From: Cafeteria roenbergensis
Lineage: Eukaryota; Sar; Bigyra; Bicosoecida; Cafeteriaceae
NCBI GenBank assembly: GCA_008330645.1
Contig: VLTN01000039.1
Span: forward strand, 1-64,000
Direction: 5' to 3'
Length of the DNA: 64,000 nt
Shown: positions 35,004 to 62,400 of the stretch, piece after piece
How positions within the stretch are numbered: the stretch's first letter is position 1
Layout of the letters: each line of letters opens with the position of its first letter
Program-made: the position numbers and the translations under genes
Notes under the pieces: generated by a model
Told to the model about the DNA's origin: nothing
Seen by the model: only the letters and a program-made list of their open reading frames with translations
Database searches by the model: none

Positions 35004-37040
35004 TCACTCGCCGCCGCCAGACGCGTCGCCGATGCCGTCGAGCCAGCCGCCAGTTTCCCACATACTGGCGCCCTCCAAGTCGCTGTCAGTTTTGCGCGCG
35101 GCCGCGGTCCTCGCGGCCTTGGTTCTCCGGTGCGCCGCTCGGGCGTCGCGAATCGCGTTGCGCCCCAACGCGGAGGCAAGCGCCTCCCGAATGTCCCGCA
35201 CTCGCACAATGGTCAGGCGTCCGCCGTCCGGGCGCTGCATCCACTTTCGGGGCTTCTTCCCGGCCCTTGCCCCCCCAACGCGCGACCCCGGGGCCGATGC
35301 AGCGTCGCCCGAGCTGTCCAGCGGCAGGATGACCCTTCGGAAGCCAAGGGCCGCGAGGGCGCGAAGCCGCTCGTCCTCCCCCGCCACCGCGCGGAGCTCT
35401 CCGCTGAGCGCCACCTCCCCCAGGATCGCAGTGTCTGCTGGCATTGCGATGTCCAGCGCGGAGCTCGCAAGCGAGGCGGCCACCGCAGCCTCCGCGGCCG
35501 GGTCGCGAAGCCGAATGCCACCCGCAACGGACAGGTAGACGTCGCTGCGGCCCACGCGGACGCCGGCATGCTTGGCCAGCACTGCGAGGAGCATGTGCAC
35601 GCGGTCGACGGACACGCCGGAAGCGCGGTGGCGCGGCCACTCTGCTGCCGAGGAGTTGCACAGAGCCTCAATTTCCACGCAGAGAGCGCGCCTGCCCTCC
35701 AGCGTGGCCGTCACCGCCGACCCTGCCGGCACAAGCGCGCTCGCTGCGTCCTCTGCGTCGTGGGCGTCGGCGTGGCGGAGGCAGCGCAGCGCCTCTGCCC
35801 GCGCTGGGGAGAGGAACATGCCTGCGGGGTCCTCGACCTCGACCAGGCCAGCGTCGCTCATCACCAGGAGGGCCACCTCCGAGGTGGCGCCGAACCTGTT
35901 CTTGGCCGAGCGCAACACGCGAACGGGCGCGGTGCCTGCGCCCTCGCCTTCAAGCAGCACCACCGCGTCGACAAGGTGCTCGAGCACGCGAGGCCCCGCG
36001 ACCTCGCCTGCCTTGGTCATATGCCCCACCAGGACGACTGGCACGGAGGAGGCCTTGGCCAGCTGGAGCAGCCGCAGCGCGCACTCCCTGACCTGCGACA
36101 CGGTGCCGGCCGCGGAGGCCACGCCGTCCAGATACATGGTCTGAATGCTGTCCACGATGACGGCGTCGAAGGGCAGGTCGATGCTTGCGTCCGAACCAGC
36201 GGGCGAGGCGGAGGGCGGGCCTGCCCCATCGGGCGCCGCGGACCTCTCCACCGCGGGGCGAATCGCCTCGTCAAGCAACACCTGCAGCGCCCCGTCAAGG
36301 CTCGTCTCGTTCAGCACCTCGATGCCGGCCAGCCCTCCGGCGAGGTCCGGGTCCTCCTGCTCCGCCTCAGCCTCCACGAGGCGCACCGCCCGCCTTGCGA
36401 TCTGGGCAGGGGATTCCTCGCCCGCGATGTAAGCCACTCTCCCGCGCGCGCCCGGCGCTTTTGCGATCGAGCGCGCGAGCTGAAGGACGAGCGTGCTCTT
36501 GCCGATGCCGGGAGAACCCGCCAAGAGGACGACAGACCCACGAACCAAGCCGCCGCCGAGGACGCGGTCGACTTCGGACGCCCCCGTCGACACCCTGCCG
36601 TGCTCGCCCCCCGGTGCGGCGCCGGCAGCAAGGCCGGCGCTGTTTGCGTAGGCCGTGATCGGCACAAGCCGGCCGCCCCCGGCCCCTCCGCCGCCTGTGA
36701 ACCCAGAGCCAGTCACGTCCCATCCGCGAGAGGCCGATTTGGGCTGCGAGAGCCTGGCGCCCATGCCTGCCGGGCTCGCCAGCGACGGTTGCGGCTTGAA
36801 CTCCTTGAGCGTGTTCCAGCCCTTGCACGACGGGCACTGTCCCTGCCACTTTGCAGTCTCGTTCCCGCAGTCTGTGCAAAGGAATACCGTCTTTCCTGCC
36901 CCGGCCTTCGCAGTCGCGGCGCGCCGCGCTTGGGCGGCCTGAAGCACTGGCCGCGCGCTTCGCGACCTGAGCGGGCCCGAAGCGCGCAGCGCCATGCCAC
37001 GCGCGAGCACTGAAGCGGCATGGGCTATGCGAGTTGCCAT
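35004..37040 (-). CDS. radA: RadA/Sms-type DNA repair ATPase, organelle-targeted
   Basis: The start chosen is MATRIAHAASVLARGMALR, 678 residues in all; an upstream in-frame ATG would add about 24 residues. The first 45 residues are Arg/Ala/Ser-rich and lack acids, consistent with a mitochondrial presequence. The bacterial RadA plan is complete: C4 zinc finger (CTDCGNETAKWQGQCPSCKGW, residues about 53-72), RecA-like ATPase with Walker A AGSPGIGKST (about 175), Walker B in DAVIVDSIQTM, the RadA-specific KNRFG motif (about 378) and the Lon-protease-like domain (about 450-610). RadA promotes branch migration in recombination. Eukaryotic copies are known in plants and some protists and act in organelles. 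The C-terminal 70 residues are basic and extra. It is convergent with the formin. Confidence 0.95.
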   Translation of the reverse strand: MATRIAHAASVLARGMALRASGPLRSRSARPVLQAAQARRAATAKAGAGKTVFLCTDCGNETAKWQGQCPSCKGWNTLKEFKPQPSLASPAGMGARLSQPKSASRGWDVTGSGFTGGGGAGGGRLVPITAYANSAGLAAGAAPGGEHGRVSTGASEVDRVLGGGLVRGSVVLLAGSPGIGKSTLVLQLARSIAKAPGARGRVAYIAGEESPAQIARRAVRLVEAEAEQEDPDLAGGLAGIEVLNETSLDGALQVLLDEAIRPAVERSAAPDGAGPPSASPAGSDASIDLPFDAVIVDSIQTMYLDGVASAAGTVSQVRECALRLLQLAKASSVPVVLVGHMTKAGEVAGPRVLEHLVDAVVLLEGEGAGTAPVRVLRSAKNRFGATSEVALLVMSDAGLVEVEDPAGMFLSPARAEALRCLRHADAHDAEDAASALVPAGSAVTATLEGRRALCVEIEALCNSSAAEWPRHRASGVSVDRVHMLLAVLAKHAGVRVGRSDVYLSVAGGIRLRDPAAEAAVAASLASSALDIAMPADTAILGEVALSGELRAVAGEDERLRALAALGFRRVILPLDSSGDAASAPGSRVGGARAGKKPRKWMQRPDGGRLTIVRVRDIREALASALGRNAIRDARAAHRRTKAARTAAARKTDSDLEGASMWETGGWLDGIGDASGGGE

Positions 37041-37168
37041 GGGCGTGGGCGCAGCGGCGGGAGCGGCGGGGCTGCGCGAGTGGTGAGGCTGGGCCCGTCG
37101 GCTGCGCATTTGCTTGGGCAGAGTTCGGCCGCGACAACGCAACCTCGCGCTCCGGCGCACAGCGAACC

Positions 37169-39006: not shown

Positions 39007-42000
39007 TCACACCACAGACACAAGTCCCCGGGGCAAGCCCATGGCGATGAATTTGTCTTGCACGGTCCGGTTGAAGGAGGTTGTGCCGCAAATACTGACG
39101 AAGAGAAGGTCCTTCTGCGGCAGAAGCGAGGCCAGCTTCTCGTCCGTCAGGTAGCCCGTGCTCGGGTTCTGGAAGTTTCGCAGCACAGCACCGCTGCGGT
39201 TTGCAGTCTTGACGTTGATGAAGAGCTCGAAGTCGGGAATCTCGCGCGCGCACTTGTTCAACCACTCGCCCTCGAGCACGTTGTCTTCGTTGGCGAAGCA
39301 GGCAATAAGCACGAGCTTGATGCGGTTGAGTTTCGGGCTCTTTTGCCGCGAGGGGTCGTCCCCCATGCCGTCGGCAAAACGGGAAGCAGCACCGTAGGGG
39401 GCCTTCTTGGAGACCATCGTGGCCTTGGACCCGCCCCCAGCGCGCTGCTGGGCATACGTCGGGCTCGCGTACGCGGCCTCTGGGTCGAGTGTCTTGGCCT
39501 GCAGGAGGGGTGGCGGGCTCCGCCCTCCCTCCACGAGCTTGCCGACACCGCCCACCATGCCCTCTGGAGCAGCCTTGCCATCCACCCATGCCGTGGACTT
39601 GCGGCCAGAGCCGGTGCTACTGCTCGAAGCGTCCGCCGTGCGGGGACGCGAGCCAGTGCCAGCCGAGCCGTTCTGCATTCCTCGGCCAGACCCGGGGCCG
39701 GATCCGCCGCCGTCTTGGCGCATTGCCCCTTCGGGGATGATGAGAGCAGCGTCGTCGTCGCTGCTGTGGCCGAGCTCCCGCTCGCTTGCCCGCTCTTCGA
39801 CCGCAGGCAGCGCAACGCCGCCACCCTCCGAATGGTACGGCATCGGTTCGACTGCGACCCTCGAGGAGCCCGCGGACGACGACCGGTCATCCCCCTTCCC
39901 CGCCAACCCCCAGCTTTCTTCCCTGTGCTTCTGGTACGCCGGTGCAGTTGCTTCCCCTGCCGCCGAGCCCCTCCATGCGGGGCGCCTCCAGGACTGCGTG
40001 TGGGTCAAGCCCTTGTGCAGGGCCTCGCGGCGCTTTGCCAGCAGGTACGTGATGACGTCGAAGAACGTGAAGACGCCCGTTCCTTGCGCCACCGCGACCA
40101 CAACACCGTGGGAGTTGTCGTCCAGGTGGATTCCGACGCCCTTGGGACCCAGCATCGTGGCTTCATCTCCCACGGCGAGCTTGTGCACGAGCGGGGAGAC
40201 CTCGCCGAGGGGGTATCGGCGAACATACAAGTCAAAGCCATCCCGGTTGTCGCGGCGAACGATGGTGTACGGCCGCTCCACATACTCGGACGGAGATGCG
40301 GCGCCCAAAAAGGTGGCGAGCGATCCCCTGCGCTTTGATGCCCGGACGCTGGAGGATGTTGGGACGATGTCTCCAGCTCCATCGGCATTCTCCACCGGAA
40401 AGCGCACCAGCATGTACCTCCCGAACGTGGACGGGCGCCAAGAAGCAGCCGGGGTGCCGACGCTGTCCGAGTTGCGAAACTCGAGTCGCACAACTTCTCG
40501 GTCTGCGCCGGGGTTGATGATGGTCCGCTTGGCCACCGTCCAAGTGACGGCGTCTTCTGCCCGGTCGCCGCTGGTGCGGTCTGCCCAGTTGGACGATGCC
40601 TGCCCCGTTGCTGTAGACTTGAGCACGCCCACGCACATGCCGCGGAGCAATGTGTGCGCGCGCTGGGAGTGAACGTGCTTGCCCACACGCTCGGAAAAGG
40701 CGTCCCTCCCGAAGAAGAACTGGCCCACATCGGTTCCGATGCTGCCTTCGATGAGGAAAGCTCCTCCAGGATGGGTGTACAAGAAGTTGGACACGTCGAA
40801 CACCCACCCGTCGAGCAAGACCCACTTGTTCCCGGCGCGAATCGCCATCTTGACGTCGTGCATCGTGAGGGACTGGTGCGACTCGGCGATGAACGAGCGA
40901 TCGAGCTTGCCATCAGTTGTCGTCTTGAGCTTCGAGGGAGAGCTCAGCTTGTCCTTTTGCATGTCTTCGAAGACGGCCAAAATGACAAACGCAAACGTGA
41001 TGACGACGAAGAACCCGAGCACGTAGTACTTGATCTCGGGCAGAAGCTCCGCAACACCCAGATAGCAGTTCACCATGCCCGAGATGGTGAGCAGCCAGCC
41101 GAAGCCGCGGTGGAACCACTTGGTCCAAAAGAAGCTGGTCGGCGGGACCTTGGATCCCCTCATGAATTGCCGCATGATTGTGCCGGCGACGATTTCGATG
41201 ATCAGCGTGACGGCCACGGTCACGCCAATGTACTGATGCGCGATGGCGGTGCCTCCCGCAGCCGACGCCAGCGCGGCCCCGGCCGCTGGGACGGTGATGG
41301 AGGCTGCCAGCATCATGGACCACCTGTGAAACGCCTGCCAGCTCTTCAGGTGCTTGGCGAAGCGCACGGTGAAGACGCCGGCCGGCACGAGGCAGCCCCA
41401 CGTCGCGAACATAGAAATGCCATGGAAGCCGTACGCTGCCAGCTTGGCGTTGCGAATTTGCTCGTCAAAGTCGATGGTAGGGAACGCGGAGCTTCCTCCG
41501 GTGCCATTGCCCGTGCCGCCGCCACCGCCAGAGCTGCCCCCGCTGAGGAAGTCCACGCTCAGGCCGGCAACGCGATTGGCGCCGTGAATGGCAAACGTGT
41601 CGGACGACGGGTCCCAGGCGCAGATCACGTTGTTTGCTCCGGCGGTGATCGGCTTGTCGCCGGCAGCGTCGCCTGTGTCGAGCTTGCGACGGAACGTCAC
41701 AGTGCTCACGCCACCGCTCTCGCTCCCAGACACCAGCTTCGTGTCCTGGCTGCTGTCCGGCGCCGGCAGCATGTACCCACCGGCCTTGGCATCGATGACC
41801 TCGGGCGTGCCGCCCTGGACTCGCATCATGATGACGTCGGCGTCTCGCATGCCCTGCCCCAGCCCGATTGCGAACCAGCCGGTTCCCTTGAGGGTGGCTG
41901 TGATTTCAATCTCCTCAGCGCCCGCCGCGGGTGGCACCCACTCGATCGAGACTGCCGGACTGAGCTGCTGAGAACGTTTGCTCGCGCCCGTCCCGCCAGA

Positions 42001-44173
42001 GGAGCCGGAGCCGCTCCCGCCAGAGCTGCCGCCATCCGTGGCACCGGCCTGCACCCACTCTTTGGGCACCCGCATGACAGAGTCCGGGATGCTCTTCGCG
42101 TCCGTGTTGCGCCGGATGATGTCGGCCATCGTGGTGCCCCGGATCTCGTCCCGCTCCTCCTCGCTCAGGTAGGGCACGAACTTGCCGCCCTCGTAGTGGC
42201 CCAGCTGGTCGTTCTCGAACCAGAAGCGGTCGCCGTCCCGCGTGCGGATGAACTGCTCGCGGATGATGGCCTTGAAGGTCGGGCCGACGAAGGCGCCAGA
42301 CGTCGCCTGCTCTGCAAGGCCGCCCACCCACAGGTCCACCTTGGTCACGTCGCCGCCGTACAGCTGGCTGAGAATTGCAGCAATCTGAGTGTTGGATGTG
42401 ATGTCGGCAAACGTGCTGGGCGGCTGCAGGCCGTACACCTGGCGCGCGCGAGAGAAGGAGGGGATCCCAGCGTCGCGACCCCTCAGGACATCCACCGCGG
42501 CGAGGTCGTTGCGAATGCCCTCGAGGAAGTTGCGCACATCGTCCACCATGACCGTGTCGATGGCGGACTCGGGCTGCAGGATGGACCCGCGAAGGTAGTG
42601 CGCGATGGTCGTGTACTCGAGGTAGCGCGGGTTGAAGTACACGTCGCGGAGGAGCAGGTTGCCCGACGCGCAAGTGGTGCCGTCCTCCTCCGCGCACCAG
42701 TACATGGAGTTGATGCCCGAGTGGCCGTAGCGGTACGCGGCGACGGCGAAGGCGATGTCCACGGACGCGTCCACGGTCGGGTCGTACCCTGCGTACTCTG
42801 GCAGTCCCTCGCCGAGGAGGAGCGGCACGTACTCCTTGTACACGACATTCTGCAGGAGGGCCATGACGCGCTTGCGCGCCTCCTGAAACAGGCGCTCGTC
42901 GTCCCACGCGGAGTTGGCCTCGGCGAGCTTGCGTGCCTGGTAGTTGTGCTCGAGGACGAAGACGGCGTGCAGGCACAGCAGGCCCGGGTTCACGTTGGCG
43001 CGCGGGTCGCCCGCGAAGCGCTGGGCGGCCGAGTTGCGCAGCGGCCCGCCCATGGGCACGGCATCGCCCGTGTTGCGCGGCAGGCCATTGACGGGGTCGG
43101 CGATGAGGAGGCCGCCGTTGAATGTTCGGAGCAGCCGCACGCGGTCGTCGCTCGAGCCGTAGATGGCGCTGGCGTCGAGGAAGTGCGTCTGGCCGTTGAC
43201 GGGAGCTCGCGGGTTTCCCTGCGAGGTCCCGCTCGTGGGGTCGTACTGGAGGCGCTTGAAGCTGATGCGCTGCGTGCCGGTTCCCGCAGGGTCCATGTCC
43301 TTGTCACCGCGAGGCACAGTGATGTTCAGCACCTCGCCGGGCCGGTCGTCCCCCATCGTCATGATCACTGCGAGCAGGGCGGGGCGGTTGTTGGCTCGGG
43401 AGTGAGGTTGGGGAGGGGGGGTTCGCGGCCGAGGCGGAAACCACCCTGCTCCCTGGGGACTGCGGTTCCGTCTTCTGGCCGCCAGGCATTTCTTGGTGCC
43501 TTGAACGCAGCAGGGCACGCGCAAGTTCCCGCAAGAGGTGCTGGGCGCAGGGATGGCTCAGGGTAGCAGAGATTAGCGAGGGCACGGGAGAGGCCCGGGC
43601 CGGATGGCGACCAAGCCCGCGGAACCGCTTCCCCTCCCGCCAACGTCTGCGCGGACCTGTGCGCAAGGCAACTGCTTCAAGGCGGCGTTGCTCACTGTCA
43701 TGCGCCACGAACTGCCCCATGAAGGCCGCGATGAAGCTGACCTCGTGCCTGCGAGCGGTGCGGGCGGCGAGGCGGTTCCGGGAGAGCTCGGAGGCGCCCT
43801 GTTGAGAAAGAACTCGCGTGAGCAAGCCTTGCCGCGGAACGTTGGCAGCAAGGACAGTGGCGTCAGGCGTTCCGAGACTGGGCCCATGCACGCCCGGCGA
43901 GCCTCTCAGTGCCCGCCAGACTCACTTGTTGTAGCGGAACGGGGGCTGCCCGAACAGGACGTTCGAGACCACTCGCGGCGCAGGCAGCGTCTCGTCGATG
44001 GACGACTTGCCGTCCGCGTAGAAGGCGAGTCCCAGGCGTCGGGAAAACCTGGAGCCCACCGTCCCCTTCGCGGCGTCCAGGAGGTTGTTCTGGCTGCCGT
44101 CGATCGGGGCGAAGAGAGGGGCGGCCGCTATTCCAGCAGCCCCCAGGGCCAGCGCGGCAAGGGCGGCTCGCAT
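39007..44173 (-). CDS. Heme peroxidase-DOMON-cytochrome b561-cytochrome b5-FAD/NAD reductase fusion
   Basis: Exons are 44173-43926, 43798-43696 and 43367-39007, about 1570 residues. Exon 1 opens with a signal peptide (MRAALAALALGAAGIAAAP). Residues 30-550 are an animal-type heme peroxidase: distal His in GQFVAHD, LNITVPRGD, HFLDASAIYGSSDDRVRLLR and proximal His in AVAAYRYGHS (about 333). The catalytic Arg site reads LEHNY, not REHNR. A DOMON domain (about 585-725) follows, then cytochrome b561 (about 755-920) with His in HGISMF, HRWSMM, HQYIGV and HRGFGW. Cytochrome b5 (about 945-1030) has HPGG. The FAD domain has RPYTIV; the NAD domain has AVAQGTGVFTFFD and ends ICGTTSFNRTV. Electrons could pass from cytosolic NAD(P)H through FAD and hemes to the extracellular peroxidase. 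The exon 1/2 join is off by one base beside a GGG run. Confidence 0.88.
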
Positions 44174-44695: not shown

Positions 44696-47600
44696 TCAGC
44701 CCAGCGCGGTGGGGTCCGTCTTGAAGACGTGCAGGAGCTTGCTGAAGGCGGTGACCCACTCCGCGGCCTGAGCCTTGTTCGTGGCCTCGAGGCACAGCGT
44801 GGTGCGCTCACCAACGACGCAAAGGCACTTCTGTGGCTCTGCCGCGCGGCCAAGCAGCCGCTTCTTGTGGTCGGGGCCGGTGCCGGCGTTGACCTCGATC
44901 ACGGAGCGGAGGTCGAGGGCGCCGAACTTGTCCTTGGTCCTGGCGTCCTGCCACACAATGGACCGGAAGTCCGGGGCAACGAGCACGTGCGCGGCCTTGG
45001 GGGTGCCCTTGGTCCAGACGCTCATCACGCGGCCGGCAGCGAGCTTGCTCCGGACGGAAGCGAGCGGGTCGGTGCGCACCTCGGCCTGCGTCTTGCGGCT
45101 GGCGCGGGCGGCCTTGTGGCCGAGCTTCTCGCTCCGCTTGAGCTGGTCAAGCGCGGACATGGAGAGGATGGCGCTCTTGCTGGCGCGCTGGATCTCCTCG
45201 TCGGTCGGGTACGAGGCGAGCACGTCCTCGAGCAGGTCCTGGCCTCCCTCCTCGATGGTGAGGGCAGCGTTCTCCTTCGAGGACATGGCCAGGGCGTCGA
45301 TGCCGCGGACGGCGCGGAGAACCAGCTCGCGCTCGTCCGGGTGGTCCACCACGGCGTTGATGAGGATGTTCAGGCCGCCGGACTGGATGATCGCCTTGAG
45401 GTTCGCCTCCACGAAGGAGAGGTGGGTGATGAGGCGCATGCAAGCGGTCAGCAGCTCGGCGTCGTCGCGCTGGTCCTCCGCCACTCCGAGGATCACGTGC
45501 AGGCCGTCCTGCGCGATGCTCACGGACAGCTCGTCCTTGGCGCACATGCGGGTCAGCGTCTGGAGCGCCTCCGTGATGTACGCGCGGACGCCAACGTCGG
45601 CCGCGTTGGGGGCGTTGTCGCGGATCATGGCGATGAGCGACTCCACCGCGTTGGAGTTGGCAAAGGCGTCGCGCGCGGACTCGTGCACCGCGAGGGACGA
45701 GAGGGCGAGCTGGCCGGCGAAGAGCAGCTCCGTGTTCTCCATGCCGTGCTGCTCCATGGCGGAGATGATCACGGGGATGCCGTCCAGGCTGACCACCGCG
45801 GCGGCGGCGTCGGGCGACTCCGCCAGCGTGGCGAGCAGGGGCATGAGGTGCTCGAGCAGGTCGGCGTCCCAGTCGAACTGCCGGCCCAGGTCGATGAGCG
45901 TGGGCACGACGGCCAGTTCCGCCACCAGCTCGCTGGACACCTCCAGGTCCGAGCAGATGTTGTGGAGGGCGTCGAAGCCCGCCTTGACGACCGCGGAGTT
46001 GGCCTGCATGCGCTGGATGGCGTTGAGCACCTCCTTGGCGCCCTCCTCGTCGTACACGACGCGCTGGACCGACATCCACTCGGCCTGCTCCTCCTCCGGG
46101 GCGTCCTCCGGCGGGCCCTCCTCCTCCAGGGAGGCGAAGTTGGCCAGGACCTCGCAGGCGATCTGGAGCAGCTCCGCGTCGCCCTTGAAGTGGCGCATGC
46201 TGGAGACGATGGCGGCAGTGGCGTGGTTCTCCACGGCCACGTAGCGAACGTTCTCCTCGCTGTAGGTGCAGTTGCCCAGGGCGCGCATGGCCATCTTGAC
46301 CAGGGCCGCGTCCTTGGTGGCGAAGTCGTCCACGAGCAGGGTGAGCTCGTCCCCGACCGACTGGCCGACCTTGAGCTTGATTTCGTCGTCGGAGAACATG
46401 ATGTTGGACAGGGCGCACACCGCGGCCTCGAGCGTGCGGGGCTTGGTGCGGTGGGCCTGCATGCAGCGCTCCACGGCGTCGATGCCGCCGGCGCTCACGA
46501 TGGCGTTGGTGTTCTCGTCCGAGTTGAACGCCAGGTTGGCGAGCGTGGCGAGGCCGCGCGTGGCGAGGTCATCGTCGCGGTAGTGGCGCCCGACGGCGAT
46601 CGTGATGACCACCTCGATGCCGCCCTCCTCGGCGACCATGCCCTTGTACGCGTCGTTGCGCGAGATGCGCTCCAGCAGCACGAGGAGCAGCTTGATGAGG
46701 GCGATCTTGTCGGGCTGGGCGCGGACGGCCGCGATGATGGCCCGGATGCCGCCGTTCTCGGCGATGGTGGCGGTGTTGCGGGCGTTGAGCGACAGGGACG
46801 AGAGCGTCTCGGCGGCCGCCGAGGCGATCTCCTCGGAGTGGGCAAAGGCCTCCATGGCGGCGCACATGTTCTTGATGGCCGTGGTGTCGGCGGTGACCAC
46901 CTCGTCGTCGGACTGGCCGCGGGACAGCTCCGCCGCGGCCATGACGGACTCGGTCAGCGCCACGAGCTCCTTGGGCGCCTCGTGCAGGGTCTCGCCCGTG
47001 GCCGTGTTGACGAAGTACACCTTGCCCGCGTCGTCCACGTGCTGCTTGATGGTGAGAGCGGCGCCGATGGTGTCGCTGGCGGTGGCCAAGGCGCGGTTCA
47101 TGATCTTGGCCGGCTCGTCGCTGAAGACCGAAGCCATCTTGTCCATCACGGCGGCGGAGGCGGCCCGCACGCGGTCGCTGGCCGCGTGGTCCGTCTGGGC
47201 GTCGGCGATGAGGCGAAGCGCCTCGCGGTCGAGGCCGCTGGCCTCCGGGCCCACGACCTGGGCCACAAAGTACGCCGTCTCGATGGCGTCGGCGCAGACG
47301 GCCTCATCCGCGGCGTGGGCCTTGATGGCGGCCATGATGGTCCCCATCGTGTCGGACTGCGCGAGGGCCTCGTTGGCCTCCTTGGACCCCGCCTGCGCGA
47401 TGCTGCGCACGATGGACAGCAGCGTGGAGGTGGTCTCGGGGTCGGCGATGTTTGCCTCGAGGAGCCCCATGAGGCTCTTGAGGCCCTGCCCGTTGGCGAA
47501 GGCCGCGGCGCCGAGGGCGTCGGGCGAGGCGGCGGACAGCAGGCCGAGGGTGTCCTCGGCGAGGCGCAGCGCAAGCACGCGCGAGCGCTGGTCCGACGTC

Positions 47601-50600
47601 TCCGTCAGGGCCCCCTGGAGCTCGACGGCCTTGGCCAGGGCCGTGGAGAGGCCGGCCATGCAGCGGGCGGAGCCGGCAAAGGTGACCCCCTCCCCGGAGG
47701 TCTCCGCCTCCTCAGCGAAGGAGTGCACAAGCGCGCGCACGCCCTCGGAGACGACGTCGACCATGGTGCCCGCGGAGACGGTGGAGGTGCCGTTGGCGGT
47801 GTGCACGGCCGCGGCCTGCAGGACGCACCAGAGGGCGTCGCGGCCCTCTTCGGACGCCACCATGCGCTCCACGCACGAGGCGAGGGCGGTGGGGTCGGAG
47901 GAGTTGGCGGCCACGATGCTGAAGAGGGTCTCGCTGCCGCCCGCGCGGCCCACGAGCGCCGCCGAGGACGCGATGACCGTGTCGGTGATGGACACCATGG
48001 CGGCGGTGGTGAGCGACTGGAGGTTGGCGTCGGCTGCGTGGGCGCGGCGCATCTCGGCGATGGCCTCCACGGCGCCGAGGTCTGTCATGAGCGTCACGAC
48101 GTCGAGGCCGCCCGACTGCGCGAGCTGGGCCAGGGTGTGGATGGAGCTGTTGCGCACCACGGCCGACTTGTCCGCCATGGACATCACGTCCAGCACCTGC
48201 TCCACGATGCTCTCGTCGATGCGGGAGGCCAGGCCCATGGCCGCGAGGCGCCCGATGCTCTGCACGCCGGCCGCCATCACCTCGGGGCTGGCCACCTCGG
48301 ACTCAGCCATGAGCGCCACGGCGTGGGACAGGGTGTCCATCACGGCCGCGGCGTTCTCGCTCGTGACCACGCCCTCGAGGAGCGCCATGTTGCCGAGCTT
48401 CTGCACGGACAGGCCGAGCGAGGCCACGTCATCCACGGTGACCACGTCGCTGCCCCCCACGCTGGCCGACAGGGCCTGCACCTCCTCCACGGCGATGCGG
48501 CCGGCGTCGGCGCCGGTGCCGAGCACGCTGAGAGTCTTTGCGCCGGCGGACACCAGCTCGGCGTCCGTGCCGTTCTTGTTCATGCCTGCGATGACCAGCT
48601 CGTTGCCGCCCGCGGCCACGATCTCCTCCACCACGGAGGCGTCGGCGGTGGCGCACTCGCCGAAGAAGGCGATGGTGGCGGCCATGGACCCGCCGGAGCT
48701 CACGTAGTCGCCGTGCGACTCCACCGCGCGCACCACCTTCTTGATGGCGCCGGACACGCGGACGGTCTCGAGGGCCTCGGCGCCCCCGTGCTGCACCATG
48801 CTCTGGAGCACCTCCACGGCGCCAGCGAGCGCCGCGCCGTTGCCGGCCTTGGAGTCGATCGCCTGGGCGGTCAGCACGTGCTTCATCAGGTCGACTCCGC
48901 CGCCGGAGAGCACCTTGCGGGCGTGCTCGGGGCTGTTGCGGACGATTGCGCGGAGCAGGCCGAGGGCGTTGGACACCGATTGGGCGTCCGTCGTGGCGTC
49001 GACGTCCTCCAGGAACTCGCGCACGATGCCGAGCACGTCGGAGCTGCCGATGCGCGCGGCCACGTCAGCGTGCTGCGCTGCCGCAGCAAGCGCGGCGAAG
49101 GTGGCGCCAGCGATCTCGGCGTTGCGCATGTTGGCCCGCAGGAGGGAGCTGGTGAGCTCGATGATGCGGGCGCCAGTCTCGCCCTCGCCGGCGAGCTGGG
49201 TGGCCACGGTGTGGTCCTTGGACAGCGCCATCACGCACTGGAGGGCCTCGGGGATGGCCACGCCGGCGTCGAGCGCCTTGATCACCATGGCGCTCACGTT
49301 GAGGCCCTCGGGGATAGCGGCGCCGCGGGAGACGTTGGCCAGGGCCGTGAAGGCCGTGGGGAGGATCGCGTGCACGGACTCCTGGCTGGCGCTCTCGCTC
49401 ATGGTCACGGCGGTCAGCACGGTCGCGAGGTGGGCGATTCCCTCGCGCTCGGCGATGGTCTCCGTGAAGGTCGACACGGTGGTGATGTGGCCGAGCTTGG
49501 CCAGCACGGGGCGAACGTCCTCGAACGACGGGACGCCTCCGCTGGCGGCGGTGCGGGCCAGCTCCTCGAACTCGTCGAGCGTGGTGTGGACGTCGTCCTC
49601 GGTGAGGAGGCGGGAGAGCATGCGGGTGGTGAGGTCGGAGGTGGCCACGCCGGCGGGGGCGGAGGCGAGGCCGGCAGCGCTGGCGCCCCCGGCACTCGCG
49701 GCGGAGGCGGAGGTGGCGGCGGAGGCGGTCTGGGCCGCATGCGCAGCGGCGCCGGAGCTCTCAGCAGCTGCCAGAACAGCGTCAACGGCCCCCTGCTTGG
49801 AGAGGGTCTCGGCGCCGACAGCGGTCATGCTCACGCGCTGGAGGAGAGACACGCAGGAGGACATGGTCGGGGCGAAGCCTGGGGTGTTGGTGTTGGCGTG
49901 GATGGTTGCGATGAGCTGGCGGGTGCCGCCGTGGCGGGCCACAGCGACGGCGCCCTCGTCGGTGGAGGAGATGCGGAGCATGATGTCCACGGCCGCGCCG
50001 ATGATCTCGGGGTCGGAGGGGTTGGCGCGGAGCACGGCCGCGCACGCCTCGATGCCGTGCTCGTCCGTAATGGTCTTGGCGCAGGCCTCGATGGTGGAGA
50101 AGGACTTGAGGAACTTGATGCCGGACCCGACGCTCTGGGTGAGCTTCGGGTTCTTGGAGATGGCCGTGATGACCGCCTCCACGGCGCCCGACTCGCCCAG
50201 GGAGGAGCGCAGGCTGGGGTTCTTCTCCACGCAGTCGCTGATGCCAAAGAGGGCGTTGGAGGCCGCGGACAGGAGGACGTCCTGCTTGGGGACCCCGGAG
50301 GTGGTGGCCACGGTGCGGATGGCCCTGACGAGGATGCCGAGGCCGGACGAGTCCTCCTCGCCGTCCTCGCGCTTGCGCGCCGACTCCTTCACCACCGCCT
50401 CGGCGTTGGCGGGGCGCAGCGTGAGGGCGGCGCACTTGAGGATGGCGCTCTCCACGGCCCGGGCGGCGGCCTTGGACTTGGTCTCCGCAAGCTCAGCCAT
50501 GGCCACGTCGAGGGTGGACCAGGTCTCGGCGACCAGATCGGCGTCCGACACCATGTCGAGGAGGTCACGGGCGGCGTCGCGCACCGCGGGCTTGGCCGCG

Positions 50601-52734
50601 AAGCGGGCCACGGCGCGGAGGAGGACGTCCACGTGCTCCGTGTTGTTGGTGAGCGCGATGCGGTGGCCGTTGACCACGCACAGGGAGCCGATGACGTAGA
50701 GGGCGGTGGAGGCCAGCTGGGAAAAGTACGCGTCGTCGTCCTCGGACAGCTTGGGCTCGCCGGATTTGCGGGGGCTGATGGCCGTTGCGGCGCGAGCGAC
50801 GGCGGCAACTGCAGCGTCGAGGCCGTCGGCGCCGACGATGTCGTCCACCATGGCCTCGCTGCTGGCCACCATGGCCAGCACGCGCAGGCCGCTGAGCTGC
50901 ACGGAGCGGTCCTCGGGGTGGGCGGCGATGCAGCGGGCGGCGGTCTCGCCGACGTCGGTGAGGCCTGCGACGTCGAAGTCCATCATGCCGAGGTTCTCGA
51001 TGAACTCGAGCCCCGAGGATGCGGTCTCCGCGGACTCCGTGTGGGAGGCAAGGTTGGCGAGGACCACCTCGACGCCCCCCGCCTTGGACACCGCGCGGGC
51101 GTTTTCGGGAGAGGAGGCGAGCTTGATGAGGGTGGGGGTCACGGAGCCGGCGAGAGACGGGTCGTCCTTGTGGGACTTCATGGCGTCGACGATGGCCTTG
51201 ACGGCGCCGCCTTCCACGAGCTCTGCAATGTGCGCCGGGTCGGAGGCGATGCGGCCGATGGCGCGGGCGGACGACGCGATGACGCCGGCCGAGGAGGCCC
51301 CGAGGGTCCCGAGGAGCACGGACACGCCGCCGGACTCGACGATGCGCTCCGCAGTCTCCTCCTCAAGGGCGAGGTTGGCGAGGAGGGCCGAGAGCGACGC
51401 GCGCTGCTTGGGGTCCTCGCAAGTCTTCATCTGACGCACCAGGTCGGGCACGTTGCCGGCGGCGAGCTTGGTCAGCAGGCGGCCGCCAAGGTTGCAGAGG
51501 CGGTCGTTCTTGCTGTGCACCTCCAGGGCGGCGGAGAGGGAGCCCATGCCGTCGCACGACTCGCGGATGAACTCAGCGTGCTCCTTGGAGCGAGTCATCC
51601 GATCCAGGAGGCGGAACGACGCCTCCACCATGAGCGACTGCACCTCCTCCGAGCCGGAGGTGGACGAGGTGTCGGCGATGGGCTCCTTGATCGCCTCGAG
51701 GAGGTCCGGCACGATGCCGGAGTCGCGGAGCGCGGCGCCGCCGTCGGGGCACTTGTTCATGTTCTCGAGCGCTGCGACGCAAGACTTGGTGATGCTGGGG
51801 TGGCTCTTGCCCGACTTGCGCATGAGGCGCACGACGGCATCGCAGCCGCCCACGTCCAGGAGGGCCTGCGGGTTGAAGGTTGCCACGGTCTCGAGGAGCT
51901 CGAGCGTCTCCTGCACGCCCTCCTTGGCGTCGGGCTGCTCCTCAACGGCGTTCAGCATGCCCACGAGCGCGCCGGAGCGCGCCAGGTCGCCAGCGTACTT
52001 GGGCTCGGAGGCAATCGACTTGAGGCAGGCAGTCGAGGACGACAGCACCACGAGGTCGGACTTGTGCTTGGTCAGAACAGCCGTGATGGCGTCGAGCGCG
52101 CCCGCCTCGTAGGCCTCCTTGCGGGCCTCCTCCCACCCCACGGTGGGCGGCGTGATGGCCTTCTGGAGGCACTGCACGCTGTAGCTGGCAAGCTGCGCGG
52201 GAGGGTGCGGGGCGAGCGCGGCGCGGGGAGGGGAGCAGAAGGGCGTTGCGGCCGCTGCAACCGAGCACAAACGCGAGCGAGCGCTGGGCGCGCTGCTGGG
52301 GCCTTGCTAACCTGGCGGAAGTTCCTGCAAGGAGCGGACAAAGGGAGCGCAGACGAAGCGCAAAGAGGAGGCTGGCCGCGTGCGTGCACGCGCCGCACCG
52401 GCAAGGGCGGGGGTTCGAGCGGCCAGACGCCAGCGGGACCAGTTCGGATCCGGCTGCTGTCGCTCTCCTTCGCGGAGCGAGCGCCGCGGGGGGTAGGGGC
52501 TGCCGGGCTCACTTATGCTTGTTGACCGACTTGACAAGCTCATGGATACCTGCGGAAGCAAGGTGCCGGGGCGGCGGCGGCGCGCGCGGCGGGAGAGGGT
52601 CGGGACGGGGACAAGCGCTCGTGCGGTTGGGCGGTGGGCGCGGAGTCGCGGCTTTCCGGCCCGACGCTCGCGCTGCCGCGCCTCCCGGCCTCACCGGAGC
52701 GGTCCCGGGCCGACCCGCGGCCCTTGGAGGACAT
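44696..52734 (-). CDS. Giant armadillo-repeat protein with WW-like segment and C-terminal PH domain, three exons
   Basis: Exon 1 (52734-52695, 40 nt) and exon 2 (52549-52513, 37 nt) precede a 7.5-kb exon 3 (52184-44696); phases 1 and 2 fit and the sum is in frame, giving 2521 residues. The N-terminus is MSSKGRGSARDRS joined to GIHELVKSVNKHNYSVQCLQ. Residues 30-2390 are tandem armadillo-like three-helix repeats of about 42 residues, with recurring GGIDAVVxxM, ALxNLAxNxEN and GALDAITAVL patterns. Near residue 1740 a WW-like insert (GKVYFVNTATGETLHEAP) interrupts the array. The last 120 residues resemble a PH domain (RVMSVWTKG... to EWVTAFSKLL, with the closing Trp helix). It is probably a cytoplasmic or membrane-edge scaffold; similar giant ARM proteins occur in other flagellates, often unstudied. 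It is head-to-head with the PDZ gene. Confidence 0.88.
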
Positions 52735-59462: not shown

Positions 59463-62400
59463 TCAGGGCTTGGCCTCCGCGGCCTTGTGCTGCTCGGCCA
59501 GGACCTGGACGACCGTTTGGGGCCACTCGTGCCACGACGACATGCGCGGCGTGTCGGAGATGTGGCGGTTCCACGGCTGGGAGAAGAGGACGTGCTGCCA
59601 CTTTGGCTCCTGCGAGCCGGTGACGGAGGGCTTGTCGTCGATGAGGATGGCGCCTTGGATGTGCGTCTTGTCCCTGGCGATGATGAGGCGCGAGCACCAG
59701 TCGATTCCCATGTGCTCCTGCACCCACGCGAACTTCTCGGCCGCGCAGGCCGCGTAGCAGGAGGGGTGGGGGGCGGTCAGGATGCGCACGTCGAAACCGG
59801 CCTCCAGCATGGCGCGCATGGACTCCACGGCGCCTTCGATGGGCGGCATGGCCAGGAACAGGCCTGGCTCCGCGATGGCCTCGAGCACGGATTCGCGCAT
59901 CTCGACCGGGAAATTGGCCTCGAGCTCGTAAAGGGCGCGAGAACGAATCATCGCCGAGTCGAGCTCGGCGCGGTCCGGGTGCTTTCGCACCCAGCGCTCG
60001 ATGAAGGCGGCGTCAAAGTCCACAAGCGTCGAGTCCATGTCCACGAGCACAACGCCCGCAGAGGGCCGCGAGCTGCCCATGGACGTGTCGCCGGAGGCCC
60101 CAGCGACCGAGCCCATTGCGTGGGAGCGAGGGACGGCGGCGGCGGCAGCAGTAGCAGCCGCCGCAGGCACGGGCGTCGTCGGCATGAATCCTGAAGAGGT
60201 GCTCGAAGCGGACCCCGCCCTTGCGGCGGGCGAGGAGGCGGCCGCCGACACGGGCCGTGCGGGGGGGGCGGAGCCACCGGACGCCGAGTGCGCGGCCCAG
60301 GACGGCGTGGCCATGCTGGCGGGAGCGGCGGGGCCGGCAGCTGGCGCAGGGCGGTGGGCCTCAGCGATGGGAGCCATCGCCTGTGTTCCCATCGGTGGCG
60401 TGGGCATCGGGCCCGAGACTGGGCTAGGGATGGCGGCAGAGGCGCCAGAATTGGCGGGGCTGGCGACGGGACGGCTGGCCGCGGGAGGCACGGACGTCCC
60501 CTTGGGGGCGAGGCCTGCAGCGATTGCGGCGTCCAGCGGCACCGCGATGGAGTTGCCGGACCTTGACAGGGCCAAGAGGGCATCGGGCGGGATCACCAGA
60601 ACCGGCGCACCCTGGACCAGCGTTGCGAACGGCTGGCTCATGAGCGACGGCGGGTCGGGCGAGGACAGGCCCGCGGCAGCGCGACGGCTCTGCCGGCGTG
60701 CGGCAGAGCCCGAGGCCCAGGACCCTTGTCGCACGGACGTCATGCGGTTGCGCGCCGACGCGGAGAGCGCCGTGCCGCCCGCGCTGAAGTCCGACGCTGC
60801 GTCGGAGTCCTCCCCCCGCGCGGCGGCGGCAGCTGCATGCAGCGCCTCCTCGTCCTCGGAGTCGCCGCCGGCGCGGAGGGAGGAGAGGGACCCAAAGGAG
60901 GCCGCTGAGCGCACGGAGCCCGCAAAGGAGGGCGTGAACAGCGGGGAGGGGGAGGTGCCGTCCCACACGGAGAGGGCCGGGGTTCCGGGGCCCCGGGCGT
61001 CGAGCTCGGGCGTGGAGCCGTACACGGAGCGCAGGCCGGGGGCAGGGTCGGCAGCCGACGCCTCCGTGGCGGCCGCGCTCCCAGTGGCGGCGGCCGCCAC
61101 GGAGGAGGCCTTGTCCATGGCAACGGCCTTGCTGATGGGGCCCGTGCGCTCGTCCTTGGCCGGGGCCACGGCGAGGGCGTCGATGATTCCGCGATACTCG
61201 CTGGTCATGGCGCTGAAGCTGAACTGGCGGAGCACCCGCTCGCGGCCGCGGCGACCCATCGCCGCGCGCAGGGCTGGGTCGCGGTAGAGCTTCGCCACAG
61301 CGTCGGCGATTGCGGTGGCGCTGCCGGGGCGGATGAGCAGGCCTTCCTCGCCGTCAGAGAGGGCTTCCGGGATGCCGTCGATCTTGGATGCCACAACCGG
61401 GCGGCGCATGGCCATCGACTCGCAGATGACCAGCGGAAGGACCTCGTTGAGCGACGGGACCACGATGACGTCCGCGGCTAGGTAGAAGCGACGGACGTCC
61501 TTCTGGATGTCGAGGATGACAACGCGGTCAGCGAGCCCGGCGTCTGCGAGCACCTTCTTGATCTCCTCAATGTAGTCGATCTCGTGCTGGCGAATGTAGC
61601 GCGCCCCGACGAGGACGAGCTTGGCGTTGGTGAGGCCGTCTCGCTTCACGAGGCGGGTGAAGGCGCGCGCGGTGTTGATTTGCGCCTTGCGCTTGCAGAT
61701 GGTGCCGAGGTGGAGGATGAGGAAGTCGTCCTTGGACACCCCAAGCTTGGCCCGCTCGGCGTCGCGGTCCATGGCTTCCACAGCGGCGTCCAGCTTGCCG
61801 AGGGGGATGCCGTTGTACACGACGGACGCCCGGGCATCGTCGAAGAGGCCGTCGTACAGCTGACGCTGCACGTGAGCGGGGAAGACGATTTTCGAGGCCT
61901 TGGTGAAGGCCTCGCCGATGACGTCGGGGGTGATGTGAGAAGTGAGGAAGGTTTTCTCAGCGTACTCCTTCATCTGGTCGCGAGGCCAGGCCTCGTGGAT
62001 GACCCAGAGACTCGGCACGGCGACCTCCTTGGCGAGGCACACGACCTCTGCCCGCATCATGGTGTTGGCCAGCACGAGACCGCACTCGCGGATGACGTCT
62101 CGCATCTTGGCCTCGTAGCCGGCCACCTCGGTGGGGAGGTGGATCACGTCGCAGCCGAGGGCCTCGAAGTCCTCGCGCATGGGGCCGTCCTTGGGAGTGA
62201 TGATGAGCACTCTTTGGTCCTCGGCGAGCCGGGTAGCCAGAAAGAGGACGCAGTTGTTCGCGCCGTTGCGCTCCAGGGAATGCGAGCACAGAGCGACCGG
62301 CTTGCGCGCCATTGGTGGCAGGCCGGCGGGGTTTCCGCTGGTGTCGGGCGAGGGGATAGCCTCGGGGTCGAGCGTAGCCAGGCTCCAGTCGGAGCCGGTA

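What the first reader, a model, noticed from the sequence alone, without database searches (positions are those of the whole stretch)
39007..44173. Self-contained transmembrane electron chain feeding a secreted peroxidase
One frame encodes signal peptide, animal-type heme peroxidase, DOMON, cytochrome b561, cytochrome b5 and a complete FAD/NAD reductase (RPYTIV, GxGxG-like and ICG motifs). Animal dual oxidases combine a peroxidase-homology domain with a NOX b-type core; here the membrane part is b561 plus b5, so this could be a convergent DUOX-like machine. The distal and proximal His are present, but the usual REHNR reads LEHNY and the ester-linking Asp before the distal His is Ala, so the peroxidase domain may work unusually or only bind heme. 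I do not know of this exact architecture.
Basis: partly seen in the sequence, partly recalled or inferred. Interest (0 to 1): 0.88.

Follow-up and report, generated by a model that had tools for sequence, protein, structure and literature searches.

The report
Membrane-wired peroxidase with built-in reductase
A marine bacteria-eating flagellate carries two related genes for one long protein that looks able to pass electrons from the cell's own fuel, through a membrane, to a peroxidase domain on the far side; no description of this layout turned up in the papers searched.

Summary
The gene is real. It has three exons (window minus strand 44173-39007, 1553 aa) in an assembly that matches Cafeteria roenbergensis strain BVI. 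It encodes a signal-like N-terminus, animal-type heme peroxidase, DOMON, a b561-like membrane part (four clear helices and one borderline, four spaced histidines), cytochrome b5, and an FAD/NAD(P)H reductase whose NAD part holds a 232-aa non-conserved insert. A second gene on contig C54 has the same exons and domains. The reductase halves of the two copies are saturated at silent sites (dS over 2) but protein-constrained (dN/dS 0.12-0.19), so the fusion is old and kept. Pfam does not recognise the b561 part; that assignment rests on histidine layout and similarity to the genome's own DOMON-b561 protein. Both heme-ester carboxylates are lost (Ala98, Val226) and the proximal Asn is Asp393. DUOX1 lacks both histidines. 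Best reading: a one-protein electron conduit from cytosolic NAD(P)H to an extracytosolic peroxidase heme, analogous to DUOX but not a member (no NOX core). Whether it reduces peroxides, O2 or metals is inferred. New variant of a known kind.

The parts
43926..44173 (-). exon 1: start codon, hydrophobic signal-like N-terminus (residues 1-26), start of peroxidase domain
   Evidence: hydropathy, GT donor; An_peroxidase profile match 43940-44104; same exon in C54 paralog
43696..43748 (-). exon 2: G-Q-F-V-A-H-D, distal histidine H99, Ala98 in place of the ester-linking Asp
   Evidence: splice sites shared with the C54 paralog
39007..43367 (-). exon 3: rest of the protein to the stop codon
   Evidence: open frame
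42061..43367 (-). main part of peroxidase domain: T-H-F-L-D-A-S loop (calcium site by recall), catalytic Arg R223, Val226 (ester Glu lost), proximal H316, Asp393 for Asn
   Evidence: Pfam E 3.7e-111; PDB 8s6c E 9.3e-95 with spliced query; residues
41617..41913 (-). DOMON domain; candidate heme ligands M607 and H695 (H695 lies just past the profile match or at its end)
   Evidence: Pfam E 3e-20; ligands by analogy to HYP1 (PMC10784544, passages); numbering
40954..41433 (-). b561-like membrane domain: four clear helices and one borderline, His 749/781/811/853
   Evidence: not recognised by Pfam
40621..40857 (-). cytochrome b5 domain, H-P-G-G (H966) and a second His (H1000, assigned by motif; H998 is an alternative)
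   Evidence: Pfam E 3.3e-9; PDB cytochrome b2/b5 hits
40099..40548 (-). FAD-binding domain with R-P-Y-T (R1132)
   Evidence: Pfam FAD_binding_6 E 2.1e-5; numbering
40024..40116 (-). NAD-binding domain, first half (Q-G-T-G at 1195-1198; Q-G-T-A in C54)
   Evidence: profile match to 7rom/2eix; no Pfam match
39328..40023 (-). 232-aa low-complexity insert inside the NAD-binding domain, open in both paralogs, 26% identical
39010..39327 (-). NAD-binding domain, second half with the C-G motif (C1527)
   Evidence: dN/dS 0.125 against the paralog

Best explanation
One membrane protein carries electrons from cytosolic NAD(P)H through FAD, cytochrome b5 heme, the inner and outer b561 hemes and a DOMON heme to an extracytosolic (cell surface or food vacuole) peroxidase domain. 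Shown: domains, exon structure, kept heme and catalytic residues, and conservation of the whole layout in two old paralogs. Likely but partly by inference: a five-helix topology that puts DOMON/peroxidase outside and b5/reductase inside (one helix is borderline; with four helices the two ends would be on the same side). Inferred: that every heme is bound, that electrons flow outward, and the end use. The end use I favour is that the peroxidase takes electrons from the DOMON heme to reduce H2O2 or organic peroxides, working like cytochrome c peroxidase (a peroxidase fed by a heme protein) rather than like halide-oxidising myeloperoxidase.
For: Domain matches. Spliced gene with GT...AG introns, same exon structure in the paralog. 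Reductase parts of the paralogs: dS above 2 with dN/dS 0.12-0.19; b5 0.158; DOMON 0.158. b561: block-shuffle test reached by 1 of 2000 (C39 local and semi-global, C54 local) and 0 of 2000 (C54 semi-global); two other membrane proteins of this genome score 37-46 against 94-100. The four histidines stand at the starts of successive helices and so alternate sides if all helices are real, as in HYP1's pairs H211-H278 and H245-H314 (PMC10784544, passages). Distal His, Arg and proximal His kept in both copies. Loss of both ester carboxylates and proximal Asn to Asp moves the site away from the MPO/LPO pattern of PMC4420034; a proximal His-Asp pair is part of the peroxidase-catalase superfamily pattern in the same paper (passages); that cytochrome c peroxidase belongs there and is fed by cytochrome c is recalled.
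Against: No structure of the assembled chain: AlphaFold on the DOMON-b561-b5 part alone gave pLDDT 42, unusable. No Pfam hit for b561 or the NAD half. The fourth helix is borderline. In the alignment to the C19 protein only the first two histidines fall in the same column; the third and fourth are two and one columns off. dN/dS of the b561 part is the highest of the named domains (0.389). The proximal Asn is Asp in 1 of 15 bacterial relatives too (L042), so it need not mean a new function. The electron acceptor is not identified. b561 proteins are usually ascorbate-fed and several are ferric reductases (PMC10784544, PMC10691727, passages). RGRDHG reads RGRDAG, and DUOX1, reported inactive as a peroxidase (PMC4420034, passage), also lost that His (RGRDLG). 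C54 lacks the last Gly of the G-T-G motif.
Confidence: 0.43

Rival explanations
1. DUOX-like oxidant producer: the outer b561 or DOMON heme reduces O2 to superoxide/H2O2, and the attached peroxidase uses it to oxidise substrates, for example against ingested bacteria in the food vacuole.
For: Same order of parts as DUOX (outside peroxidase, membrane hemes, inside flavin reductase); the organism eats bacteria and viruses by phagocytosis (PMC6972860 section 4); peroxidase active-site His/Arg/His kept; the peroxidase domain scores 240 bits against human DUOX1 (the best MPO row scores 156, but that alignment covers only residues 151-487, so the two are not like for like).
Against: No NOX/FRD core in this protein. 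The b561 proteins in the passages read pass electrons to iron or ascorbate radical, not O2 (PMC10784544, PMC10691727, PMC9524095). No EF-hand was reported by Pfam. Loss of ester links should lower oxidising power for halides (general knowledge).
Confidence: 0.27
2. Surface ferric/cupric reductase (NAD(P)H-fed version of SDR2/HYP1), with the peroxidase domain protecting against Fenton chemistry or serving as a structural part.
For: DOMON-b561 is the CYBDOM core, known as a ferric reductase (PMC10784544, PMC10691727, passages); the same genome has long proteins on C19 read as Reeler-DOMON-b561.
Against: Does not need an active-site-intact peroxidase domain, yet His/Arg/His are kept; but silent sites of the peroxidase region are erased by gene conversion, so constraint there is known only from the kept motifs.
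Confidence: 0.19
3. Fatty-acid or lipid dioxygenase-like use: the non-covalent heme domain oxygenates a lipid and the reductase chain reduces the hydroperoxide.
For: Alpha-dioxygenases and cyclooxygenases match too, more weakly (fatty acid alpha-oxidase E 6.2e-16, prostaglandin synthase 1.8e-11).
Against: Far closer to bacterial peroxidase 8s6c, PoxA and DUOX1 than to dioxygenases; no test for a radical tyrosine or lipid channel was made.
Confidence: 0.06
4. Annotation artefact: two neighbouring genes or a chimeric assembly read as one.
For: The 232-aa insert and the lack of Pfam b561/NAD hits could hide a gene border; no transcript data were available here.
Against: Continuous open frame through exon 3, and the same fusion in a second locus whose reductase half is saturated at silent sites.
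Confidence: 0.05

Closest known systems
Dual oxidases (DUOX1/2), peroxidase-NOX fusions of animals
   Same: N-terminal extracytosolic animal-type peroxidase domain, membrane heme core, cytosolic FAD/NAD(P)H reductase; peroxidase domain 4.3e-70 to human DUOX1
   Different: Membrane core is b561-like with DOMON and b5 in place of NOX; no EF-hands reported by Pfam; distal and proximal His kept here but Ser in human and mouse DUOX1
CYBDOM proteins (SDR2/FRRS1, HYP1, CRR)
   Same: DOMON followed by a four-histidine b561 membrane core, signal-like N-terminus
   Different: HYP1 is described as ascorbate-fed with DOMON and b561 only, SDR2-type with reeler, DOMON and b561 (PMC10784544, PMC10691727, passages); here b5 and an FAD/NAD reductase follow and a peroxidase precedes
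DOMON-bearing ferric reductases (eFRE subfamily of Naegleria, Albugo, Phytophthora)
   Same: Extracellular DOMON joined to a transmembrane heme reductase, some in stramenopiles (PMC3591440, passages)
   Different: They carry the FRD core, not b561; no peroxidase domain is mentioned for them in the passages seen
Demosponge DspNOX
   Same: Reductase protein with an added b561-type membrane region (PMC9524095, passages)
   Different: A calcium-regulated NOX with a PAS domain in which b561 is an extra part; no peroxidase or DOMON mentioned in the passages seen
Cytochrome b5 / b5-reductase fusions (NCB5OR, nitrate reductase; recalled)
   Same: b5 next to an FAD/NAD reductase; profile match to NADH-cytochrome b5 reductase E 4.4e-11
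   Different: Those named are soluble (recalled); here the unit is tethered to a b561-like core and the NAD domain is split by a long insert
Bacterial and cyanobacterial animal-type peroxidases (e.g. 8s6c, TDX16)
   Same: Closest solved relative of the peroxidase domain (E 9.3e-95); 15 bacterial loci at 33-42% identity
   Different: None of the 10 of 15 bacterial frames that I scanned shows an electron-transfer domain; both ester residues are kept in 14 of 15 (L048 lacks Asp-His)

Membership tests
Peroxidase-cyclooxygenase superfamily (animal heme peroxidase) | Fold-wide sequence match | tested here: met
   Pfam 3.7e-111; PDB 8s6c 9.3e-95 over residues 23-536; AlphaFold model (pLDDT 57) matches 8s6c, E 7.7e-21 but rmsd about 17
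Peroxidase-cyclooxygenase superfamily (animal heme peroxidase) | Distal His, catalytic Arg, proximal His | tested here: met
   H99, R223, H316 in both paralogs
Peroxidase-cyclooxygenase superfamily (animal heme peroxidase) | Ester-forming Asp and Glu; proximal Asn | tested here: not met
   Ala98, Val226, Asp393. PMC4420034 (passages) excepts families 4 and 7 from the Asp and Asn features, so the superfamily is not excluded; the MPO/LPO kind is
DUOX / NOX family | FRD (NOX) heme core with FAD_binding_8 and NAD_binding_6 | tested here: not met
   No Ferric_reduct match at the locus; the genome search lists two, on C25 and C1; FAD_binding_8 listed on C25 and C40
DUOX / NOX family | EF-hand region between peroxidase and NOX | tested here: not met
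   No EF-hand model listed in the Pfam scans (E up to 0.1, E up to 0.01 for C54)
CYBDOM | DOMON domain with Met/His heme ligands | tested here: met
   Pfam 3e-20; M607 and H695 kept in both copies; heme binding itself not tested
CYBDOM | b561 core with two histidine pairs on alternate membrane sides | tested here: inconclusive
   His 749/781/811/853 at the starts of successive helices, but the fourth helix is borderline; similarity to the own DOMON-b561 protein
CYBDOM | Recognised by the Pfam Cytochrom_B561 model | tested here: not met
CYBDOM | Ascorbate as cytosolic donor | not testable with these tools
   the attached reductase suggests NAD(P)H instead
FAD/NAD reductase (cytochrome b5 reductase type) | R-x-Y-S/T flavin motif, G-rich NAD motif, C-G motif (motifs recalled) | tested here: met
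   R1132-P-Y-T, Q-G-T-G at 1195-1198, C1527-G; profile match to 7rom; C54 reads Q-G-T-A
FAD/NAD reductase (cytochrome b5 reductase type) | Uninterrupted NAD domain | tested here: not met
   232-aa insert (255 aa in C54) between the first and second half

The most novel reading that the evidence does not exclude
A transmembrane NAD(P)H peroxidase: a single protein in which cytosolic reductant directly re-reduces the high-valent heme of a peroxidase on the other side of a membrane through a chain of six cofactors (FAD and five hemes). It would be a membrane-crossing counterpart of cytochrome c peroxidase, built from a DUOX-like peroxidase and a CYBDOM-like membrane module, with the peroxidase site retuned by loss of both heme-ester bonds and an Asp at the proximal His.
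Probability: 0.32. Interest if true: 0.82.

Novelty: new variant of a known kind. Interest (0 to 1): 0.64.

Why it matters
If right, eukaryotes joined an animal-type peroxidase to a flavin-fed membrane electron chain in at least two ways: the NOX way (DUOX) and the b561 way (here). The function of the DUOX peroxidase domain is called obscure in PMC4420034 (passage); a DUOX-shaped protein with an intact peroxidase site gives a direct comparison. It would also show a b561 core fed by NAD(P)H instead of ascorbate, in a free-living bacterivore that is kept in culture.

Tried and rejected
Tried, led nowhere: AlphaFold on DOMON-b561-b5 from the window alone (pLDDT 42). Search of solved structures with a two-row b561 profile (0 hits). 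Whole-genome protein search with the b561 part listed only itself and C54. The b561 segment against Pfam and NCBIfam gave only insignificant hits to unrelated membrane families (best E 0.46 and 0.37). DOMON against solved structures: only weak hits (best E 0.027). Tree placement of the peroxidase domain: not resolved; with DUOX 64/49, together with own C26 not rejected (p-AU 0.362), together with PoxA not rejected (p-AU 0.144). hhalign of the b561 part with two other own b561 proteins (C24, C93) was not significant (single-comparison E 0.086 and 0.18); the C19 protein gave E 2.1e-6 over 34 columns (local) and 5.2e-6 over 135 columns (global run), each a single comparison. The second hydropathy scale was typed from recall and is not used.

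Considered and rejected: a NOX/DUOX member (no FRD core); the two copies as alleles of one locus (saturated silent divergence in the 3' half, flanks at shuffle level); the insert as an unspliced intron (open in frame over 232 and 255 codons while the other two forward frames hold 1 and 2 stops in C39 and 3 and 10 in C54; open frames are common at this GC, so not excluded without RNA); photosynthetic origin (no LHC match). The C26 peroxidase was not assembled into a gene model; I read its matching frame by eye and saw no DOMON, b5 or reductase there, and one search listed no DOMON on C26; it was not scanned with Pfam.

Limits of the novelty claim: no eukaryotic protein database was available. 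Paper searches in the held PMC library: searches returned zero papers; one paper, an unrelated rice expression table (passages); some searches listed 15 of 71, 15 of 61, 12 of 1,639 and 8 of 45 papers, and I saw no peroxidase-DOMON-b561 fusion in those listings or in the passages opened. One search was uninformative. Papers seen: PMC6972860 outline, passages and the first of two parts of section 4; PMC3591440, PMC4884027, PMC9524095, PMC10784544, PMC11934334, PMC4420034, PMC10691727 passages only; PMC6411640 searched, no passage found. Subscription papers, UniProt and InterPro were not seen. The predicted protein may already lie in GenBank under VLTN01 without comment; not checked. The Iyer et al. 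2007 DOMON paper was not held.

Mended on re-checking: helix count (four clear plus one borderline instead of five; one search added), the histidine columns, and the coverage of the MPO comparison; confidence lowered from 0.45 to 0.43 and two rivals raised by 0.01 for that reason.


Full report
What the window is. The held genome has 36,303,456 bases in 167 contigs, and its contig C26 is 460,467 bases long. The published C. roenbergensis BVI assembly has 170 contigs, 36,327,047 bases, contig N50 460,467 and 70.1% GC (PMC6972860, section 4 part 1). The window is 63-74% GC in 4-kb steps. No light-harvesting family matched, in line with a flagellate that lacks plastids. I take it as that strain; that the species is now called C. 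burkhardae is recalled and fits titles in the listing.

Gene structure. On the minus strand, exon 1 44173-43926, exon 2 43748-43696 and exon 3 43367-39007 give 1553 aa with GT...AG introns. A second locus on C54 (starting at 233534 and running down) has the same three exons and 1583 aa. The published average is 1.67-1.89 introns per gene, so two introns is ordinary.

Domains. Exon 3 alone matches An_peroxidase (3.7e-111), DOMON (3e-20), Cyt-b5 (3.3e-9) and FAD_binding_6 (2.1e-5); the C54 frame gives the same four. The reductase, queried as a two-row profile with the insert left out, matches NADH-cytochrome b5 reductase 7rom over positions 100-285 of 291 (4.4e-11), so the NAD half is covered although Pfam misses it. 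The b5 part matches cytochrome b2/b5 structures (best 4e-6).

The b561 part is the weakest assignment: no significant Pfam, NCBIfam or PDB hit. Three things support it. First, hydrophobic helices between DOMON and b5: four pass a 19-residue hydropathy mean of 1.4 and one, about 853-876, is borderline (1.40 here, 1.15 in C54); 0 of 571 windows in the peroxidase and FAD parts reach 1.4 and 4 of 571 reach 1.1. Five helices would give an outside N-terminus and inside C-terminus. Second, histidines 749, 781, 811 and 853 (a fifth, 773, also occurs) lie at the starts of successive helices and so would alternate sides, pairing 749-811 outside and 781-853 inside. The Arabidopsis CYBDOM HYP1 has H211-H278 apical and H245-H314 cytosolic (PMC10784544, passages); spacings are 32/30/42 here and 34/33/36 there. 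Third, the segment aligns to the genome's own long protein on C19, which passes the Pfam b561 cut-off. Local score is 94 for C39 and 100 for C54, reached by 1 of 2000 block shuffles for each; semi-global by 1 of 2000 (C39) and 0 of 2000 (C54). The reversed C19 sequence scores 33 and 35 locally, and two other polytopic proteins of this genome 37-46. Against: in that alignment only the first two histidines share a column; the third and fourth are two and one columns off. The 'Reeler' and DOMON labels for C19 are my reading of the sequence; one search did not list a DOMON there.

Constraint. Between the two copies the peroxidase region is nearly identical (dS 0.034), DOMON has dS 0.27, b561 0.20 and b5 0.58, while FAD and both NAD parts are saturated (dS 2.2 to 3.2) with dN/dS 0.19, 0.12 and 0.125. 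So the duplication is old, the reductase end has been under protein-level constraint in both copies, and the N-terminal half was probably homogenised later by gene conversion. Because of that, constraint on the peroxidase domain cannot be measured from this pair. dN/dS of the b561 part is higher (0.389) and the N-terminal segment is 0.906. The insert is 26% identical and open in both.

Peroxidase active site. PMC4420034 (passages) gives G-Q-x-x-D-H-D for the distal side, R-x-x-E for the catalytic Arg and second ester Glu, and a proximal His bonded to Asn. Here these read G-Q-F-V-A-H-D, R-A-N-V, and His316 with Asp393. In 15 bacterial relatives (fetched by patterns that include this protein's own FVLEHNYQ), Asp-His is kept in 14 of 15, R-x-x-E in 15 of 15, proximal G-H in 15 of 15 and Asn in 14 of 15. 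The genome's third peroxidase, C26, also shows A-H-D and R-A-N-V but keeps Asn. Human and mouse DUOX1 have Ser at both the distal and proximal His positions. One bacterial relative (L050) shows the same LEHNY reading, so that motif is not decisive.

Mechanism. The order of cofactors follows from domain order, likely topology and motif conservation; binding and electron flow are inferred. I prefer peroxide reduction because the site is complete, would be wired to a heme donor, and its changes point away from halide oxidation. O2 reduction (DUOX-like) and metal reduction remain open, at 0.27 and 0.19.

Relation to known systems. It works like DUOX in layout but is not a member: no FRD core, and the peroxidase loci listed (C39, C54, C26) are on other contigs than the FRD loci listed (C25, C1). 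It contains a CYBDOM-like core but adds a reductase and a peroxidase. DOMON-FRD proteins in Phytophthora, Albugo and Naegleria are known (PMC3591440, passages), and demosponge NOX proteins with an added b561-type region (PMC9524095, passages), so such modules have been joined before in other orders. Paper searches found no peroxidase-DOMON-b561 fusion, within the limits told under Tried and rejected.

Structure. With 15 bacterial rows the exon-3 peroxidase model reaches pLDDT 57 only and finds TDX16 peroxidase 8s6c first (7.7e-21), then PoxA, then DUOX1; rmsd is about 17 Angstrom, so it confirms the fold family and nothing finer. It lacks the distal His, which lies in exon 2.

Noticed in passing
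window 44173-42068 against contig C54 (L009): Gene conversion that looks mostly confined to exons: the first 1300 nt of exon 3 are 99.4% identical while intron 2 is at shuffle level and intron 1 is 69% identical over 163 bases (above shuffles); exon 2 is 92.5% identical. A cDNA-templated conversion would fit; not tested further.
   Followed up: partly
L021 (C19:166000-175999): Tandem pair of nearly identical long open frames (1001 and 992 aa) with a low-complexity linker and a b561 core over the Pfam cut-off, read by eye as Reeler-DOMON-b561 (SDR2/FRRS1 type).
   Followed up: partly
L010 (C26:351500-361499): Third animal-type peroxidase, with A-H-D and R-A-N-V like the fused ones but Asn kept; the match is in several pieces of one frame.
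   Followed up: partly
L020 (around C1:1306853-1307218): Temptin_C domain in the same open frame as a Ferric_reduct/NAD_binding_6 protein, another extracellular-module plus membrane-reductase fusion in the same genome.
   Followed up: no
window 35004-37109, minus strand: RadA/Sms-like protein by my reading (rubredoxin-type zinc ribbon, AAA, Lon_C) in a plastid-less eukaryote.
   Followed up: no
window 59463-62312, minus strand: One open frame matches glycosyltransferase group 1 and a cytosolic 5'-nucleotidase (NT5C) domain.
   Followed up: no
window 2471-4936, minus strand: DDE_1 transposase-like match (E 3.4e-5).
   Followed up: no
window 44696-51958, minus strand: Very long armadillo-repeat protein (2420 aa frame), the next gene on the same strand upstream of the peroxidase gene.
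   Followed up: no
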